Shown one piece after another: positions 1-58,900 of a DNA stretch of 64,000 nt; within the stretch, counting starts at the first letter, position 1, and every line of letters begins with the position of its first letter. The notes beneath the pieces are model-generated. The model worked only from the letters and a program-made list of their open reading frames with translations. It was not told the DNA's origin and did not search any database. Source of the stretch: Eimeria necatrix (Eukaryota; Apicomplexa; Conoidasida; Eucoccidiorida; Eimeriidae); contig NW_013654802.1 in assembly GCF_000499385.1 (NCBI RefSeq), positions 1 to 64,000 of the forward strand, read 5' to 3'. The translations under genes were made by a program, and so were the position numbers.

Positions 1-961
1 GTAACCCCCAAAACCCCCCAAACCCTCCAAAAAAAGCCCCAAACCCCCCACCCCCCTGCATGCAAGCCCGCATGCATGCATGCATGCATGCATGCATGCA
101 TTAGAGCTTAACCTGCCTCAATGATGGTGAGATCGTCTCTGCGTTCCGCGTCCGGAGGCAGCTGCACAGGCCCCACTCGCTGCTGCATTACAAAGCCCAC
201 GTAGAGTTTGGCCCGCTCGAGGGTCTGCGGACTTCCCCGCATTTCCAAGACTGTGCGGCCGCCCCGCTCTTCAATGTTCAACTCAGCCCCGCACACGTGA
301 CTCAACTTCCGCTTCGTCCGCCCGCCTGCAAAACCCTAAACCCTAAACCCTAAACCCTAAACCCTAAACCCTAAACCCTAGCCCTGGCGCTGGCGCTGGA
401 GCTGGCCTCGACACGAAGCCCGAAGACGAAATCCGAAACTCCAAACCCTAAACCCTAAACCCTAGAGGCCCAGCCCTAAACCTTAAAACTGACGCTAACC
501 GAAACCCTAAACCCTAAACCCTAAACCCTAAATCCGAGGCCCGGAGCCCGAAACCCTAAACCCTCAATCCGGAGTGCTTGACAGGGAACACTGGGTACGG
601 GACTGAGGGCGAGTCAGAGACGGATGCGCAAAACACAAAACCCTAAACCCTAAACCCTAAACCCTAAACCCTCCATTGGGACAAGAAGGAGACCAAGGCG
701 GAAAGGAGACAGAGGAGACGGATGCGCAAAACCCTAAACCCTAAACCCTAAACCCTAGCCCAGAGACAGAAGAACTTGGCCAAAAAGGAATAAAAGAAGA
801 AAAGAAATGAAACAAAAACCCACCTGCTCCCAAAATGAAAGAAGCATCATCATCTTCTATTTCCATCACATGAGTTACTCTCTCGTCTCCGTAATAAGCC
901 CTCCCGTTGTACTTCCCCCGCCCTCCGCTGCGGCTGCGGCTCCTGCTGCCGCGGCTGCAGC

Positions 962-1000
<39 letters not shown>

Positions 1001-1431
1001 GCAGCAGCAGCAGCAGCAGCGGCAGCAGCAGCGGCAGAGCGGCGCAGCGTATGACGCGGGAGAAACAGAAAGCTGAATGGAAACAGTAAGCTCTGCGGCC
1101 TAACAAAACCACAACCCTAAACCCTAAACCCTAAACCCTAAACCCTAAACCCTAAACCCTCAGGAACTCACGAAGAGCGGCTGCGGCGTTCAGCCCGCTG
1201 AAGACTTCTGCTGCGGCGGCTGCCTGAATGGGAGCGGCGGTCTGCGGGGCTGCGGTCAGCTGAGGGGCCCCTGGAGGGGCCCCTGGAGGGGCCCCTGGAG
1301 GGCCCCCTGGAGGGGCCCCTGGAGGCCCCCCGGGGGCCCCCCTCTCCGTCCTGAGACATTCCGCGCCCCCTCGAAAGAGAGCGCTGGTCCTCTGGCCTGT
1401 CTGGCCCTTCGTCTCTGCCTTGGGCGTTCAT
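1..1431 (-). CDS. RS-rich KH-domain RNA-binding protein, 5' part (runs off the left edge)
   Basis: Probable RNA-binding or splicing-type protein. Three exons are visible on the minus strand: 1431-1172, 954-824 and 325-113; the rest lies beyond position 1. Phases fit at both joins (TC|C, then GCA G|GC) and the donors are GTGAGT, GTGGGT and GTTAAG. Exon 1 starts MNAQGRDEGPDRPED and is rich in RGPS and RS dipeptides. Exon 2 continues SRGSRSRSRS and ends VMEIEDDDASFILGAG. Exon 3 continues GRTKRKLSHVCGAEL and goes on to an ERAKLYVGF helix. Together they give a KH fold with a GAGG loop (GXXG class), split exactly by intron 2. Intron 1 holds a CTG run and an AAACCCT array; intron 2 holds six AAACCCT blocks. 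The start at 1431 is the first ATG of the exon; the frame is open further upstream through a poly-Ala run (CAG repeat), so the true start could be higher. The KH assignment is strong; the exact protein identity is unknown. Confidence 0.72.
71..102. repeat. TGCA/CATG tandem repeat
   Basis: CATG repeated eight times without interruption, inside what would be intron 3 of the KH gene. TGCATGC is also a known apicomplexan cis-element, but its position here, 3' of an exon, suggests a simple repeat. Confidence 0.8.
330..757. repeat. Telomere-like AAACCCT blocks inside KH-gene intron 2
   Basis: Blocks of AAACCCT at about 330-379, 442-464, 502-532, 551-564, 637-673 and 728-757, separated by unrelated GC-rich spacers. 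The unit is the plant/coccidian telomere heptamer. All blocks fall between the donor after 824 and the acceptor before 325 of the KH gene, so here they are intron sequence rather than a chromosome end. The acceptor TTTTGCAG directly abuts the last block. Confidence 0.85.
962..1036. repeat. CAG/CTG triplet run
   Basis: About 25 CAG/CGG triplets. On the minus strand this is a CTG run ending just before the acceptor CTGCAG of KH exon 2, so it lies in intron 1. Forward-strand frames read as Gln, Ser or Ala homopolymers but are not supported as genes. Confidence 0.9.
1112..1160. repeat. Telomere-like AAACCCT array in KH-gene intron 1
   Basis: Seven consecutive AAACCCT units. On the minus strand the array begins about ten bases after the GTGAGT donor of exon 1. 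Confidence 0.88.
1263..1330. repeat. 12-bp GC-rich minisatellite
   Basis: About five tandem copies of GGGGCCCCTGGA, the last ones degenerate. It lies in KH exon 1 and encodes the RGPS repeats on the minus strand. The repeat length is a multiple of three, so copy-number change would keep the frame. Confidence 0.85.
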
Positions 1432-1438
1432 CTTGGCC

Positions 1439-1485
<47 letters not shown>
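1439..1485. repeat. CAG triplet run at the KH-gene start
   Basis: About 16 CAG units lying just 5' of the chosen start of the minus-strand KH gene. It is either 5' untranslated or encodes an in-frame poly-Ala extension. Confidence 0.88.
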
Positions 1486-1486
<1 letters not shown>

Positions 1487-2700
1487 GGGGCAGCGAGCGC
1501 GCAGCGGCTGAAGACCTGCAGTCCCGCACATACGCAGGGCACACCCAGCGCAGCCTAAAGAGAGGAAGTGGGGGGCCCCCGGGGGCCCCTAAACCCCAAA
1601 CCAATAAACACCAACCCCCCCCTTTTCCCCACAAGGGGGGGGGGCCCCACAGCTGGGGCCCCGGGGGTCTTTTGCTGCTGCGCTGCAGCGCGAAACTGCT
1701 GCTGCAGCGCACGCAGCGTCGCTGCGGCCCTGCTGCTGCTGCAGCAGCAGCGGGAACGGGCGGCGCGCTGCTGCTGCAGCAGCAGCGGCCGCAGCAGCAG
1801 CAGCAGCAGCCGGGAAGCAGGCCCGCGGGGAAGGGATGCACGAAATCCCGTGCAAAGTTCACGAAATGGAAAAGAGAGAAAAGAGAAATGAGACAAAGAG
1901 AGAAAAGAAGACCGCCCGATGCTGCACCAGCCGACGGCCCCATGCACAAGCCCACCTCTCGCTGCGGCGAAGAGCCTGGAGGTCAAAAAGATCTTTTTCT
2001 TCAAAAACTGGAGAAATAAAAGATAAATAAATTGCTTTTTATGCACAAGACCCAATTCCTGGCCGCGCAGCTCGCCCAGCCAGCCACACCAGAAGCCAGG
2101 CCCCGTCGCCGGGGGCGCTGCTGCTGCTTCCCCTCAGCTGCTGCTGCTGCAGCCCCTCCCGGGGCCCTCCCCCGGGCCTGTCTCTGCGCCAAAGGGCCCT
2201 TGGGGGCCCCTGGGGCCCCCGGGGGCCCTCGGGGGCCCCTCAGTTCCGCTTTCGGCGCTGCAGGGCCCCCCGCGACGCAGAGACAGCCCGGACCTCTGCT
2301 GCTGCTGCTGCAGCACGAGCTGCCCCTCACGCCCCCAGGGGCCCCCACGCTGTGGGGCCCAAAGGGGCCTCTTTTGCTGCTTTTTAAACTCTAAAAGAGG
2401 CCCGGCTTGCGAGGATTTGCTCCCGGGGGGACGGGGGCTGCAGCAGCTCAGCCCTGCTTTGTGGGGAGCTGCGACTGCAGCAAACTTTGCTGCTGCTGCT
2501 GCTGCCTCAGACTGCTTTCCCAGTAGTTAAGGCCCACACACACAAAGCAGCAACACGCAAGCCCTGCAGGGCCTGCGAAACAGAGGCCGGGGCTGCCTGT
2601 AGCTGCAGAACAAGCCAGGGGGCCCCAAGGGGCCCCCTGCTTCCAACACAGCACAGGCCCCAGGCCTCTAAGGGGTACTGGAGGGTCTAAGGGATGAATC
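1486..2700. other. GC-rich low-complexity stretch, no supported gene
   Basis: Contains scattered CTG/CAG runs (about 1675-1810, 2110-2155, 2297-2315, 2485-2510) and many GGGGCCCC blocks. Several open frames exist on both strands, but they are homopolymer or Gly-Pro products of the repeats and mirror each other across frames. I see no family motif. It would also hold the promoter of the KH gene. Confidence 0.6.
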
Positions 2701-13908: not shown

Positions 13909-16900
13909 ATGGATATGCACGGCATTTCCACTTGTCTTTGCCCCCGCGGGGCTCATGAAAATGCAAGCGACAATCAACGGACCTGTCATTCAGACCACCA
14001 CAGAACTCATCCAGGTATAGTGTACCATGAGAGCTCAAATCGCACCTACACCGCGGCTGACTCTCCTCTTTCCTGCTGCGGTGCTGCCCACTTAAAATCT
14101 TCCGCTTCACGTAACGCCCGGACTTGCGGCAGTGCACCAGCCTCTGATGCAACACACGCTGACTGCTCTGCATCCAATCGCTCAACGCAAAATGTGGCTA
14201 GGCCAGCAGAACACTCTTCAGCACATGGTGCTGCTGAAGGTGCACCATGGAAATTCAAGCGGGAAGGGTTTATTCTCTCCTTTGCTGGCCCTCTCACTGA
14301 TTCGTATGACGTGGAGCCAAGAAAGTTAGGACAAGGTACATACGGCAGTGTCTGTAGAGCTGTCAACAAGTCGACGAAGACAGTGAGAGCTGTGAAAACA
14401 ATCAGCAAAAGCAAAGTTCGAAATGTCAAAAGGTTTAAACAAGAAATCTCAATCATGAAATCTCTCGATCATCCAAATATCATGTTAGTCTTTCATTGGT
14501 TTCAACGCAAGAATTCACGACTGCATAATAACATGCTGCTAGCCAACTTTTCGTAGACAAACGCTCACTTGCTTTATAGTCAGTTCATGTGAAAAACACT
14601 CGGAAGCTCACAAGGTAGCGATAAGTGCACGCCTGCCGAATCACAAGTTTCGTCACTTAATAAGCAAGTAGCCCCAAAGGAAATCATGAGCCAAGCATTC
14701 AAACTTTCGTCGAGAACAAGCTTTTGAAACAACTGTCTAAATGCTAGAGTGCAGCACGAAGGCACCGTTCGTGGTCCTTCATAATCATTTGATCTCTCCT
14801 TTAAGAGTTCTTTTGGGCAACGGAGCATTCGATAAACTGTACATGACAGCCTACGCAGAGCTTAATAGATTGTGTCCCTATCTGTTTTACACGTGACTCT
14901 ACACATGCATTGGCATATACAAATTTCATCACTTAATAGATTGTTTCCCTATCTGTTTTTCAGGTGACTCTACACATGCATTGGCATATATAACTTTCAT
15001 ATCAGCCTGTGTATTTTTTAGGGGACTCGCATAAGCCTTTCTTCGATAATTTGTAAATCAGATCTTGCGCTCACTCTTGTGTTTTCAGAAAACTTTTTGA
15101 AACATTTGAAGACCACAAAAATGTGTACCTCGTAATGGAGCTTTGCAGAGGTGGAGAGCTTTTTGATCGCATTATAGAGCAAGGATACTTTTCAGAGGCA
15201 TATGCTTGCTCGCTTATGCGCTCCATACTGGCAGCGCTTTTCTATTTGCACAAGCATGGGATTGTGCACAGGGACCTTAAACCGGAAAACTTCATGTTCC
15301 TTGACAAGGGCAAGGACGCACCTTTCAAAATAATCGGTACCAAACACCTTCATACAGGCAAAAGATCGTTTTCAAACAGTCCTTCCAAAAAAGGACTGCA
15401 CACAGAATCAGACAGGCTACACACAAGAAAGCTGTAGCAGATAAGTTGGCACATATGCGCGACGGTATCCAAGTGAATCATCGATTTCGTGCCCTTCGGG
15501 TCAAGCTTCCTCCTTGAGCAATTTGTTTAACCTCAGTTCATGCTGCAAACTGTCGGATGTCCGCATGAGCAAGTCGCTGTGCACTATACCGTGCTGCAAA
15601 GAAGACTTTCGCGGAATCATGTTGTGACACAGCGTATGGCTGCTGGCTGTGTAGGGTGTCATAGTACCGCAGGCATTTTCTGCTGTGTTTGATGTACAGA
15701 CTTTGGGCTGGCAACACGCTTCAGCAATAATGCATTCATGTCCACACGGGCGGGCACGCCATTTTACGTAGCACCTCAAGTGCTACAAGGAAAATACACA
15801 TACAAGTGCGACATGTGGTCGGCTGGAGTCATTTTATACATTCTTCTCTGCGGCTACCCCCCATTTCATGGAGAAAATGATGCTGAAATCCTTGCACGGG
15901 TCAAGGTTGGGAGGTACACATTTAATGAGCATGACTGGAAGGGAGTCTCGAATGAGGCAAAAGACCTTGTTAGGAAATTAATGGCCTTCGATCCTCACCG
16001 TAAGCACCATTGTAGAATACGTAACATTATGCCTCGAAAACTGTAGTGCTTTGTGCTGATTTGTGAGGCCGCGATTGTGGATGCTGCTCAAGGATGAGAA
16101 CACGCACCCACACCGAGTTTACTAGCACTACAACATTGGCCTAGTGAGAGATAGCCTGAATGAATGACAGAGTACGGAGTCATGCTGCCACCAGTTCAGT
16201 TTAGACGATAGAGGGAAGTCTGATCGCTGTTGACTATTCCCACGCTGGGTTGCAGCATTGCGCCGCAGAACGACTATCGGCCGAGCAGGCGCTCAACCAT
16301 CCTTGGATTAAACACTATTCCACAGGCGCCAATCCAGCAGCAGATGCGCCCTTCAGCCGCACAATGCTCGATCACTTCAGAGTACGCATGCGGAGTGATG
16401 TAGTGGAGAACTAGATCAGTATCTTCTTTGGGTCACGCGTTCCATGAAAAGGAAACTGGATACAAAGGGACACGTTCTTTCGTATAGAATGCATAGAGGC
16501 GAGACATTAGAGCTGGGTTCATTTACTTTCGTTTGCACTGTAGTAGTCGTTCCGGCTAGGAGGCACGTCAACTTAATATCATCTTACAATCGTGTTGCCC
16601 TGAAACTTGTGCAGCTTATGTGCAGGCATTCCAAGCTCTCTGCAAACTGAAAAAGGCAGCACTGACCATTATAGCGCAGCAGATGAGCGAGTCGCAAATC
16701 GAGCTACTCACACACACTTTCCTTGGTACATTGTATTGCTGCCCCTCTCTTCAGCATCAAAAGACTGAGGAACAGACTGGCTGCAACGCAGAAATACGAG
16801 AGCAAATGAAGCGTTGCTCTGTGGCGATAGTAACCGCGAAACACTTTGCCTGCATACCGCGTTGCAGTAAAGTGTAACACATCTCAGGGCGAGTCCTGAC

Positions 16901-55931: not shown

Positions 55932-58900
55932 GAAGAGATGCACCATAAGTATGCTGGAACACGAAATCATACTTCATTCGGTTTTGGATTTTCCGGTTCC
56001 ACTTACAGAAATTGGCAACGGGAGTTGTTCTGTTCCGTGACCGCGCAAGGCCAGCCATATTCCCCTGGCATATGCTGGGATACAAGTCAAAGTAGTGCTA
56101 AACAGAAAGGGTCTTCGTGAAGCAGTGTTCGCGCCTAGTCCCTTCGCGACTTGAGTTTTTCTGCATTTGCGAATGGCGGTCCGCTCCAAAGAGACAAAAT
56201 CGCTTCATTGCTTCATCTGGATGCATATTTTGATGTTTCTACTTCTTAATAACGTCTTCCGCTCTTTGATGTGAGCTTCCACAGCTATTCCCTTCATCAA
56301 ACTTCAGCGTCCTTTCTATTGGATCCAGTGTGGCTGATGGAGTAAACGGGTAGAGCACAGGCCTGAGTATTCGTTCGGCCCGAAATCATTAAAGTGAAGG
56401 CATCACAAATAGTTGATTTGCAAGCAAATTCAGACGAGTTTGTTGGAGTTGTTGAACAACCGTGGAGGATTTACACTCTGGAAAAATTAAGCAGTATGTT
56501 CATTGGAAAGCAATTTAGAAAGCACTGCGCTACGTATTTGAAGAAAGGCCTAGTGCTAATGACGTCACGAGCAGCGGCATCCTCGAAGTCAAGTTTTTCG
56601 CGCTTATCCACGAAAACCTTCAGATTGGGTCAATTTGGTGCCTTGTTAGATCAGCGTTGCTTCAGTAAGACGCAAATACTGTCGCTCATAACAGGGAACC
56701 ATCCTAAGCAAACGCTTTGCCTTGATGAACACGAGCTGCATTGCTCTTGTTCGAACATTGCATGAAGTGTAGCCAGAAATTTCTACGTCAACACGGCAGA
56801 GGTCCCCAGGCAGATATAGAACAATTTTAGTTAACTCGGAAAGCCTCCCAGGCACCAGCGCACGTATTTCCACCCTTGGAAAAGCGCCATTACCGGAAAT
56901 TTAGTCTGCCTTTTCCCCTTGTTACTTTCATATATGCACTTCCTGATGGCGTGGGTCGTACACTTCACGGTGTCAGCTACTCACCTCAATGGCTACTTTT
57001 TTGCTTCGACAGCCTGAAGCCTGTTCCGAAGCGCCGCCACATTCCCACCAGATTCGCGCTGGGACATTGCTACGGATAAGTTCCAACTCCGTTTTTTGCA
57101 TTCACATGTATGCTGTCCTACTTGCTTACTGTCAGGACTTTCTTTTCCAACTCCAGCAACGTGATGGAAACAGTGACAGTAGACAAAAGGCATGCTTTCC
57201 CTCAGTTGCTAACAGAGGCAAAGCCATCAACATTTGCCTTCTATTCCAACTAAACTCAGGAATGTGACTCATAAGTAAACGTACAGCTTTTTCCCCCTTG
57301 TTCGGTGCTGCCGCTGAGTTAGGGGGTGGTGAGGGGTGGACCCACTCATAAATACCAGAGTGAGTGGTAGAGGCCTTTAGTTATGATCATCTTCATCTTT
57401 GTGAAGAAGAATAAAAGCTCGTCTGTGATGCCCCTCCACAAGCCTGTACATCATCGTTTTGTTGGCTTTTCTTGCACTGCAGGACGACGACGGAATGATT
57501 CAAGAACCCAAATCGCGAGTGCCATCTCTGCTCTAGTCCCACCAAGTCCTTTCAACGTTTTTCCGGCACTTCAGTCATTGGTTTGTTCAAGACCGTCCAT
57601 GTTACCCACCTCAAACGCAAGTGCGCGTACTTTAAGCGCCTCAGTAGACAATATAGGCATTTGAGCTTCTTCCATCAAACAATGTACGCTGGAGCTTACA
57701 TGAATCCGTGGATATTTACTGCAGACTAGCAATATCTCACTGACATCTAAAAAGGGCAATGAAGCTTCCACCTGGGAAGCGAATAAGCAGGCAGGCAGGA
57801 AAACACATAGCAGGAAAATGAAACGCTTGTCACAAAAAGTCGGTTAAAACGAGTTGGCACGTTGCAGAGCGCAGCATGGAAAGCAACGAACCAGTCCGCT
57901 CTCCCTACGGCTGCCTGAGGCATCGAGGCTACGTGGAACTTGAGATACTGAGTAGCTCAATGAGAGCGGCGAATTCAGAGGTGCCTGTGTCACAAAAAGT
58001 CGGTTAAAACGAGTTGGCACGTTGCAGAGCGCAGCATGGAAAGCAACGAACCACTCCGCTCTCCCTACGGCTGCCTGAGGCATCGAGGCTACGTGGAACT
58101 TGAGATACTGAGTAGCTCAATGAGAGCGCCGAATTCAGAGGTGCCTGTATCAACAGCAACGGGATGCACGCTGCGTCGCTCACAAGATTCGCGGTTACAG
58201 GTTTCCCGTTGACTCGAGGACTCAGCGCCCCCTATTCTTGGCACGCAGCAACTGTTAGCTAAACTGGCTTTCCTTTCCACACGTTTTTTTGGATCTAACG
58301 TATCAGCTTAGGCTACTGAGTGAAATGCGTTCGCAAAAGACTCCAACAGGCTGTACAACAGCGATCACGACCACATAGCTGGCTACATAGTGTCTGCGCC
58401 TTATGCTACGTCTCTAGTAGCGTACTACAAGCATACGAAAAGCGGGAGACTGATAGGCCATAGCCGGGCGAGCGTTAACCCGTCGCGTTGTGCCTTTGCG
58501 TAGGTGTTCCAACCCTATTTCTTACTCACATGCTGCACGAGTAATGTAAGCTAGCAGTCAAAAATAAAAACCAGCACGTGCTGAATACAGCTGCTGAGGC
58601 TTAAGGCCTGTCAAGCCTTCGGTGACTGGGATTTGTTTTGCCATGTGTCAATCGCGTCCAGCGATTGACAGCACTCTGGAAGGCTTCTCATCAAAGTCAT
58701 TCAATTCCCAGTATTTCACTTCGTCCAGTTTGCCTGCTCCTCTTTCGAGCGCTTTCCTAATCATCCACAAACCTCCACGATTTTGCGCCAGATCCAGCTT
58801 AACTTTTCAAGGCAACAACTTTCTGATTAACCGCATTAGATGCCAGTCAGTGAGGGTTCCCTAATCTCTCAGCTTTGCGAACGACGCAGCGTTGTCGGGT

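What the first reader, a model, noticed from the sequence alone, without database searches (positions are those of the whole stretch)
113..1172. Telomere-type AAACCCT arrays are intron sequence of a KH-domain gene, one intron splitting the GXXG RNA-binding loop
Three minus-strand exons join in perfect phase into an RS domain plus KH fold (ILGA|GGRTKRKL). The two introns between them consist largely of AAACCCT blocks and a CTG run. So this part of the window, which looks like a chromosome end, is transcribed and spliced. Pre-mRNA would contain UUUAGGG repeats, the RNA-like sequence of telomeric transcripts, right next to splice sites of an RNA-binding protein; a feedback role is speculation.
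Basis: partly seen in the sequence, partly recalled or inferred. Interest (0 to 1): 0.75.

Follow-up and report, generated by a model that had tools for sequence, protein, structure and literature searches.

The report
Telomere-like repeats inside KH-gene introns
The telomere-like repeats at this contig end lie in introns of a conserved RNA-binding-protein gene; such repeats are spread widely through this Eimeria-like genome, and one orientation of them sits unusually often just before splice-acceptor-like sites.

Summary
Three minus-strand exons (1431-1172, 954-824, 325 to 113 or 117) join in phase across GT-AG introns. The join matches an annotated Eimeria maxima KH protein, and intron 2 splits the first KH domain inside its GXXG loop. 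The introns (217 and 498 bp) are rich in sense TTTAGGG and CTG. No RNA data were available.

This is not a chromosome end: the gene's last KH domain and RS tail lie on another contig, C454, so assembly broke inside the gene. The heptamer has 44,244 three-unit matches here and is a published feature of Eimeria. On C454 an intron of the same gene carries it in the opposite orientation. A relative with an intron at the same codon seems to lack the array beside the acceptor. Nothing found supports telomere-RNA feedback.

One thing looks new. Genome-wide, TTTAGGG arrays are followed within 8 nt by GCAGG 1,069 times, CCCTAAA arrays 225 times; a permuted control (GACGG) gives 83, about its expectation. 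In the gene-centred sample, 7 of 10 such TTTAGGG sites lead straight into conserved exons. I infer that UUUAGGG arrays often form the run-up to 3' splice sites.

The parts
1172..1431 (-). Exon 1: ATG at 1431, Arg/Ser-rich (RS) N-terminus
   Evidence: resembles N-terminus of E. maxima P0004 (weak match, E 1.2e-4)
955..1171 (-). Intron 1, 217 bp, GT-AG; TTTAGGG array (1119-1160) near the donor, CTG run ending at the acceptor
824..954 (-). Exon 2: rest of RS region and first half of KH1 up to FILGAG
   Evidence: P0004 94% identical over aa 71-118
326..823 (-). Intron 2, 498 bp, GT-AG, phase 1, inside the GXXG loop codons; six perfect TTTAGGG arrays, the last ending 5 nt before exon 3 (...GGGTTT|TGCAG|GCGG)
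113..325 (-). Exon 3: second half of KH1 (GRTKRKL...TIIE). End is 117 if the next intron uses a GC donor (GAG|GCAGGT), 113 if CAG|GTTAAG
   Evidence: homologues continue TIIE/TIID with V
331..379 (+). (AAACCCT)7 array next to the acceptor of intron 2
443..756 (+). AAACCCT arrays 443-463, 502-529, 551-564, 638-672, 729-756 inside intron 2
1119..1160 (+). (AAACCCT)6 array near the donor of intron 1
957..1048 (+). GCA/CAG run (CTG in the transcript) ending at the acceptor of intron 1
1439..1485 (+). Second GCA/CAG run, just upstream of the start codon

Best explanation
This is the 5' part of a conserved alveolate gene for an RS-tailed protein with several (probably four) KH domains, lying in a repeat-rich (R-type) stretch of an Eimeria-like genome. 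Its introns have been filled by the genome's dispersed simple repeats (AAACCCT/TTTAGGG and CAG/CTG), and the contig ends inside the gene, probably because assembly failed in those repeats. Shown: exon joins, homology, dispersal, and the excess of TTTAGGG-GCAGG junctions. Inferred: repeats expand in introns where they do not break the frame, and the survivors near acceptors are those that still splice. UUUAGGG supplies U-rich run-up (perhaps with its last UUUA as branch-point A, 11-15 nt before the exon), and CUG runs end in (CUG)nCAG|. No telomere function or feedback on the KH protein is needed.
For: Joins and KH match; same reading in E. maxima P0004, whose KH1 is predicted as beta-alpha-alpha-beta-beta-alpha with GAGG between the helices; the gene continues on C454 with KH4 and an RS-like tail, with no other match to the KH region in the assembly; 44,244 (AAACCCT)3 matches against 24 for the reversed control pattern; 21 of 99 sampled gaps between conserved exons carry arrays; 1,069 TTTAGGG-GCAGG against 225 CCCTAAA-GCAGG and 83 TTTAGGG-GACGG, with rough expectations of 390-470 for GCAGG and 74-87 for GACGG; the end phases of the two kinds of array differ too little to cause the asymmetry (8.1 against 7.5 usable offsets of 9); 7 of 10 local TTTAGGG-GCAGG sites open into conserved exons. 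CTG runs outnumber CAG runs 38 to 10 in the 99 gaps and 22 to 2 in their last third. [quoted passage not shown] falciformis (PMC4287421, passages).
Against: No RNA data. Orientation is a bias, not a rule: 2 of 21 array-bearing gaps have only CCCTAAA and 7 have both; C1024 has a CCCTAAA array beside a real acceptor, and two TTTAGGG-GCAGG sites on the strand opposite to its gene. I looked at the orientation three times as data grew (76, 94, 99 gaps), and the later genes were picked for having many gaps, so those p values are optimistic. The per-gene test is weak (12 of 15, p 0.035) and a local CAGG-flank test was not significant (19 of 120 against 10 of 121, p 0.078). The expected counts scale from a gene-centred 289-kb sample, which also inflates the 7 of 10. 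There is no whole-genome GACGG control for CCCTAAA arrays. UAG inside each unit is a decoy acceptor that the model must explain away.
Confidence: 0.72

Rival explanations
1. Passive infiltration (differs from the best explanation only in the acceptor part): arrays are neutral simple repeats in introns, and the TTTAGGG-GCAGG excess arises from mutation or insertion bias at array edges (for example telomerase-type healing at particular sequences), not from splicing.
For: Arrays occur in both orientations; two of the three unanchored local TTTAGGG-GCAGG sites are antisense to the C1024 gene; the authors of the E. falciformis genome consider near-neutrality (PMC4287421).
Against: A same-composition word (GACGG) after TTTAGGG arrays occurs at about its expected rate (83 against 74-87), while GCAGG is about 2.3-2.7 times expected; 7 of 10 local cases are at exon starts, in a gene-centred sample.
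Confidence: 0.3
2. One reading: the UUUAGGG-containing pre-mRNA is a TERRA-like RNA that the encoded KH protein or telomere-binding proteins recognise, giving feedback on this gene.
For: UUUAGGG lies beside splice sites and the product is a KH protein. hnRNP A1, a splicing protein of animals that also binds single-stranded telomeric DNA, prefers UAGGGA/U (PMC9634572, passages).
Against: The repeat is dispersed and in introns of unrelated genes; the same gene has the opposite orientation in another intron; the P0008 relative appears to lack the array at this acceptor; no binding evidence.
Confidence: 0.03
3. A true chromosome end or subtelomere with a gene beside it.
For: Arrays lie at a contig end.
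Against: Arrays are short, interrupted and confined to introns; the gene continues on C454; the rest of the window and the other C150 stretches read (64-74 kb and 145.6-155.6 kb) have no arrays.
Confidence: 0.01
4. The intron in the GXXG loop was created by insertion of a telomere-repeat block in the Eimeria lineage.
For: P0001, P0003 and P0009 read through the loop without an intron; about one third of intron 2 is array.
Against: P0008 appears to have the intron at the same codon with a G/T-rich, array-free end (inferred from its translated ORF), so the arrays look secondary.
Confidence: 0.06

Closest known systems
Interspersed AAACCCT/AGGGTTT heptamers of Eimeria R segments (PMC4287421, PMC3505466, PMC9131526, PMC7564333; passages seen)
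   Same: Same unit, dispersed, found together with CAG runs and (PMC3505466) TGCATGCA, mostly outside coding sequence
   Different: The passages seen do not describe orientation in introns or adjacency to 3' splice sites
E. maxima 'KH domain-containing protein, putative, partial' (P0004)
   Same: Same RS + KH order and same reading across both joins; 86% identical over exon 3, 94% over exon 2
   Different: P0004 is a longer prediction (407 aa); here KH1 lies on C150 and KH4 on C454, and the part between was not found in the assembly
Interstitial telomeric sequences of mammals (PMC7215372, start of abstract in the search listing only)
   Same: Telomere-type repeats at internal sites
   Different: Those were attributed to insertion during double-strand-break repair; mechanism not tested here
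hnRNP A1 UAGGG splicing elements of animals (PMC9634572, passages)
   Same: UAGGG motif close to splice sites
   Different: Motifs in animal genes; no such protein was looked for in this genome

Membership tests
KH domain (Pfam PF00013, type I) | Profile match above curated cut-off | tested here: met
   29 bits against cut-off 21.5, residues 115-172 of the joined protein
KH domain (Pfam PF00013, type I) | beta-alpha-alpha-beta-beta-alpha fold with GXXG loop between the first two helices | tested here: met
   AlphaFold model of E. maxima orthologue P0004 (mean pLDDT 71.9): E98-103 H106-113 H115-127 E130-136 E139-146 H148-166; GAGG in sequence. The window protein itself was not modelled
Alveolate RS + multi-KH protein (P0004, P0005, P0010 group) | Several KH domains and RS-rich end(s) | tested here: inconclusive
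   KH1 and RS N-terminus in window, KH4 and RS-like tail on C454; P0004 aa 188-329 not found in the assembly at E <= 0.01. P0005 has 4 KH_1 stretches, P0004 and P0010 have 3
Chromosome-end telomere | Long uninterrupted terminal array, no gene beyond it | tested here: not met
   Perfect arrays of 14-49 bp inside introns; gene continues on C454
Telomeric-repeat RNA (TERRA) | Transcribed from subtelomere into the telomere array | tested here: not met
   Locus is inside a gene that continues on another contig; transcription itself not measured; definition recalled
Eimeria R-segment dispersed heptamer | Dispersed AAACCCT with CAG runs and TGCATGCA, outside coding frame | tested here: met
   literature passages
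3' splice site run-up element | Enriched directly before acceptors in the sense strand | tested here: met
   (sequence statistics only, acceptors inferred by homology); supporting but weaker:
3' splice site run-up element | Mutation or inversion changes splicing | not testable with these tools
   needs minigene or RNA data

The most novel reading that the evidence does not exclude
In this Eimeria-like genome a telomere-type repeat has become a standard 3' splice-site module. Several hundred acceptors (1,069 TTTAGGG-GCAGG junctions, about 600-680 above rough expectation) are preceded by UUUAGGG arrays in the sense direction. The last UUUA serves as branch-point region and the upstream UAGs are masked (for example by G-quadruplex or an hnRNP-like protein), so changes in array length could shift splicing in 7-nt, frame-changing steps. 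The array-split KH1 exon is one case.
Probability: 0.3. Interest if true: 0.72.

Novelty: new variant of a known kind. Interest (0 to 1): 0.48.

Why it matters
The large stock of telomere-like and CAG repeats in Eimeria has no known role; [quoted passage not shown] A strand-asymmetric link to splice acceptors gives a testable handle: arrays may be kept, or tolerated, according to how they read in the transcript. It would also affect gene annotation, because each unit contains a decoy UAG acceptor.

Tried and rejected
Chromosome end: rejected because the gene continues on C454. A paralogous KH gene as source of the match: not found; with the E. maxima protein 4 matches, all on C150 or C454. With the window protein 42 matches at E <= 10, of which the 39 outside the three window exons cover only RS-rich query residues 8-118, not the KH core. 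Uniform sense orientation as a property of the gene: rejected, C454 carries CCCTAAA after the inferred KH4 donor. Orientation test on 76 gaps: not significant (6 G-only against 2 C-only, p 0.29); at 94 gaps the array nearest the downstream exon was TTTAGGG in 15 of 18, at 99 gaps 18 of 21, with 12 G-only against 2 C-only, p 0.013. Because I looked three times and chose later genes for their many gaps, I treat it as suggestive and rely on the whole-genome counts. Donor-side test: too few cases (2 against 0 for GGTRAG, 1 against 1 for GTRAGT). Local CAGG-flank test: p 0.078. Total arrays in sampled gaps are 33 TTTAGGG against 52 CCCTAAA, because one gap (C1024) holds 29 CCCTAAA arrays. CTG excess: 11 of the 38 CTG runs are in one gene (C54) and per gene it is 12 against 4, p 0.077. 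PDB sequence search gave only weak hits, ankyrin proteins first (E 0.0005, judged spurious), KHSRP and hnRNP K KH domains at E 0.06-0.2. NCBIfam gave only matches far below cut-off. Genome papers PMC4199364 and PMC1800922 are not held, so whether they mention intron orientation is unknown to me. The structure model was not searched against fold libraries.

Full report
What was checked. The window is the first 64,000 bases of contig C150 (155,646 bp) of a 44.0-Mb, 1,148-contig assembly. The size is close to the 43.7 Mb (753 contigs) reported for E. falciformis (PMC4287421, passages), and the KH protein is 86-94% identical over two exons to an E. maxima protein, so the genome is Eimeria-like; the species is not proven. 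On the minus strand the exons 1431-1172, 954-824 and 325-113 join across GTGAGT...GCTGCAG (217 bp) and GTGGGT...TTTTGCAG (498 bp) into an open frame. The product has an RS-rich N-terminus and a KH_1 domain, E 8.7e-7. Intron 2 falls in the codon of the third residue of the loop GAGG.

Homologues. The first search gave three proteins, the alignment search eleven at E <= 0.001 from the 7,994 best of its candidates, twelve different proteins together. P0004 (E. maxima, NCBI, a gene prediction) reads through both joins as predicted. P0001, P0003 and P0009 are ORFs that run through the loop uninterrupted, so the intron is not universal. P0008, an ORF very close to P0004, begins with what I read as intron sequence directly before GGRTKRKL, so it seems to have the intron at the same codon, but the stretch next to its acceptor is G/T-rich and not TTTAGGG (inferred from the translation, no DNA held). 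The intron position thus appears shared by two Eimeria-like genomes, and the array beside the acceptor is not. P0005 and P0010 show the longer architecture, several KH domains with RS or RG ends. An AlphaFold model of P0004 from 10 sequences (mean pLDDT 71.9, pTM 0.45, disordered N-terminus) gives KH1 as beta-alpha-alpha-beta-beta-alpha with the GAGG between the helices.

The rest of the gene. P0004 residues 330-407 match C454:9788-10021 (92%), 67 bp from the end of a 10,088-bp contig; the other three matches at E <= 0.01 are the window exons. C454 also seems to encode an RS-rich tail after a (CTG)nCAG acceptor. Residues 188-329 have no match at E <= 0.01, so KH2-KH3 probably fall in the gap between the contigs. 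The inferred intron after KH4 starts GTAGCCCTAAACCCTAAACCC, the opposite orientation. So this is a contig end inside a gene, not a chromosome end. In homologues exon 3 is followed at TIIE/TIID by V, which in the ORFs is compatible with a GT donor. In the window GAG is followed by GCAGGTTAAG, so a GC-AG intron is the simplest way to keep the frame; CAG|GTTAAG or a stop at TAA (110-108) are alternatives that the assembly cannot decide.

How common is it. (AAACCCT)3 occurs 44,244 times, against 24 for the reversed pattern. From six Pfam families (241 of 322 hits used) I formed 148 pairs of neighbouring exons and obtained DNA for 99. Of the 99 gaps, 21 hold an array of 14 nt or more: 12 only TTTAGGG in sense, 2 only CCCTAAA, 7 both. 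The array nearest the downstream exon is TTTAGGG in 18 of 21 gaps and 12 of 15 genes (p 0.0015 and 0.035; gaps of one gene are not independent). Earlier looks at 76 and 94 gaps gave 12 and 18 array-bearing gaps, the first without significant bias; the genes added later were chosen for having many gaps.

Whole-genome junction counts. TTTAGGG arrays followed within 8 nt by GCAGG: 592 + 477 = 1,069. CCCTAAA arrays followed by GCAGG: 118 + 107 = 225. TTTAGGG arrays followed by the permuted word GACGG: 54 + 29 = 83. Scaling local frequencies near arrays gives 471 and 87 expected; leaving out the junction sites and counting only usable offsets I get about 390 for GCAGG after TTTAGGG, 360 after CCCTAAA and 74 for GACGG. 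So the control fits, GCAGG is 2.3-2.7 times over after TTTAGGG, and at 0.5-0.6 of expectation after CCCTAAA. The phase in which arrays end does not explain it (8.1 against 7.5 usable offsets). A few sites are counted twice (3 of the first 100 listed, by eye). In the 289 kb in hand there are 10 distinct TTTAGGG-GCAGG sites. Seven open directly into conserved coding sequence: AAA (C13), TCP-1 in C233, C355 twice and C626, a kinase exon in C26, and the KH exon here. Three are unanchored, two of them at C1024 on the strand opposite to its DEAD gene. All 4 CCCTAAA-GCAGG sites are in C1024, one of them a real DEAD-box acceptor. This sample was fetched around conserved exons, so 7 of 10 cannot be taken as the genome's rate. 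The exon identities rest on domain hits starting within about 45 nt of the acceptor, except C13, where I recognised the AAA sequence from memory, and KH, which rests on P0004.

CTG. In the 99 gaps CTG runs of five or more units number 38 against 10 CAG runs, and 22 against 2 in the last third (11 of the 38 are in one gene; per gene 12 against 4, p 0.077). Three acceptors of the KH gene itself appear to follow CTG runs.

Mechanism. Shown: homology-supported exon joins, dispersal, and orientation and acceptor statistics. Inferred: the repeats grow in introns and are sorted by how they read in RNA. UUUAGGG gives U-rich sequence, and its last A lies 11-15 nt before the exon in the seven anchored cases (read), which from general knowledge is a workable branch-point distance and would explain why the UAGs within the array are skipped. 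A UAGGG-binding protein or a G-quadruplex masking the array is possible (hnRNP A1 SELEX site UAGGGA/U, PMC9634572, passages), but nothing here tests it.

Literature. Dispersed heptamers, CAG runs and R/P segmentation are established (passages of PMC4287421, PMC3505466, PMC7564333 and PMC9131526). Four searches aimed at an intron or splice-site link showed 20 of 133, 18 of 20, 15 of 182 and 10 of 22 papers; none of the listed titles or abstract starts describes such a link for Eimeria. I also saw passages of PMC5718062, PMC8515493 and PMC9634572. Two key genome papers are not held, so this is not proof of novelty.

Verdict. The gene and its introns are real by homology, and as a single case they are an ordinary member of a known kind. 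The genome-wide bias of TTTAGGG towards acceptor-like sites is the part worth following.

Noticed in passing
window 107-117: Exon 3 may end at a GC donor (GAG|GCAGGTTAAG) where homologous ORFs are compatible with GT; a GC-AG intron is the simplest frame-keeping reading.
   Followed up: partly
window 1-2500 versus 2500-64000: Change from repeat-rich sequence (60% GC in the first 2 kb) to mostly 45-54% GC with few simple repeats: looks like an R/P segment boundary.
   Followed up: partly
window 14320-16004: Protein kinase gene, plus strand, three exon matches with array-free gaps.
   Followed up: no
window 57828-58152: Two 98%-matching tandem copies of a 160-bp unit in otherwise repeat-poor sequence.
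   Followed up: no
99 sampled gaps between conserved exons, e.g. contig C54 (L066): CTG runs in the sense direction crowd the 3' end of introns and some end in CTGCAG.
   Followed up: partly
window 57-101; C454 (L018 660-930): TGCATGCA-type repeats beside the KH gene on both contigs.
   Followed up: no
P0005: A close homologue of this coccidian gene is filed under the fly Condylostylus longicornis; perhaps a contaminant or gut parasite sequence.
   Followed up: no
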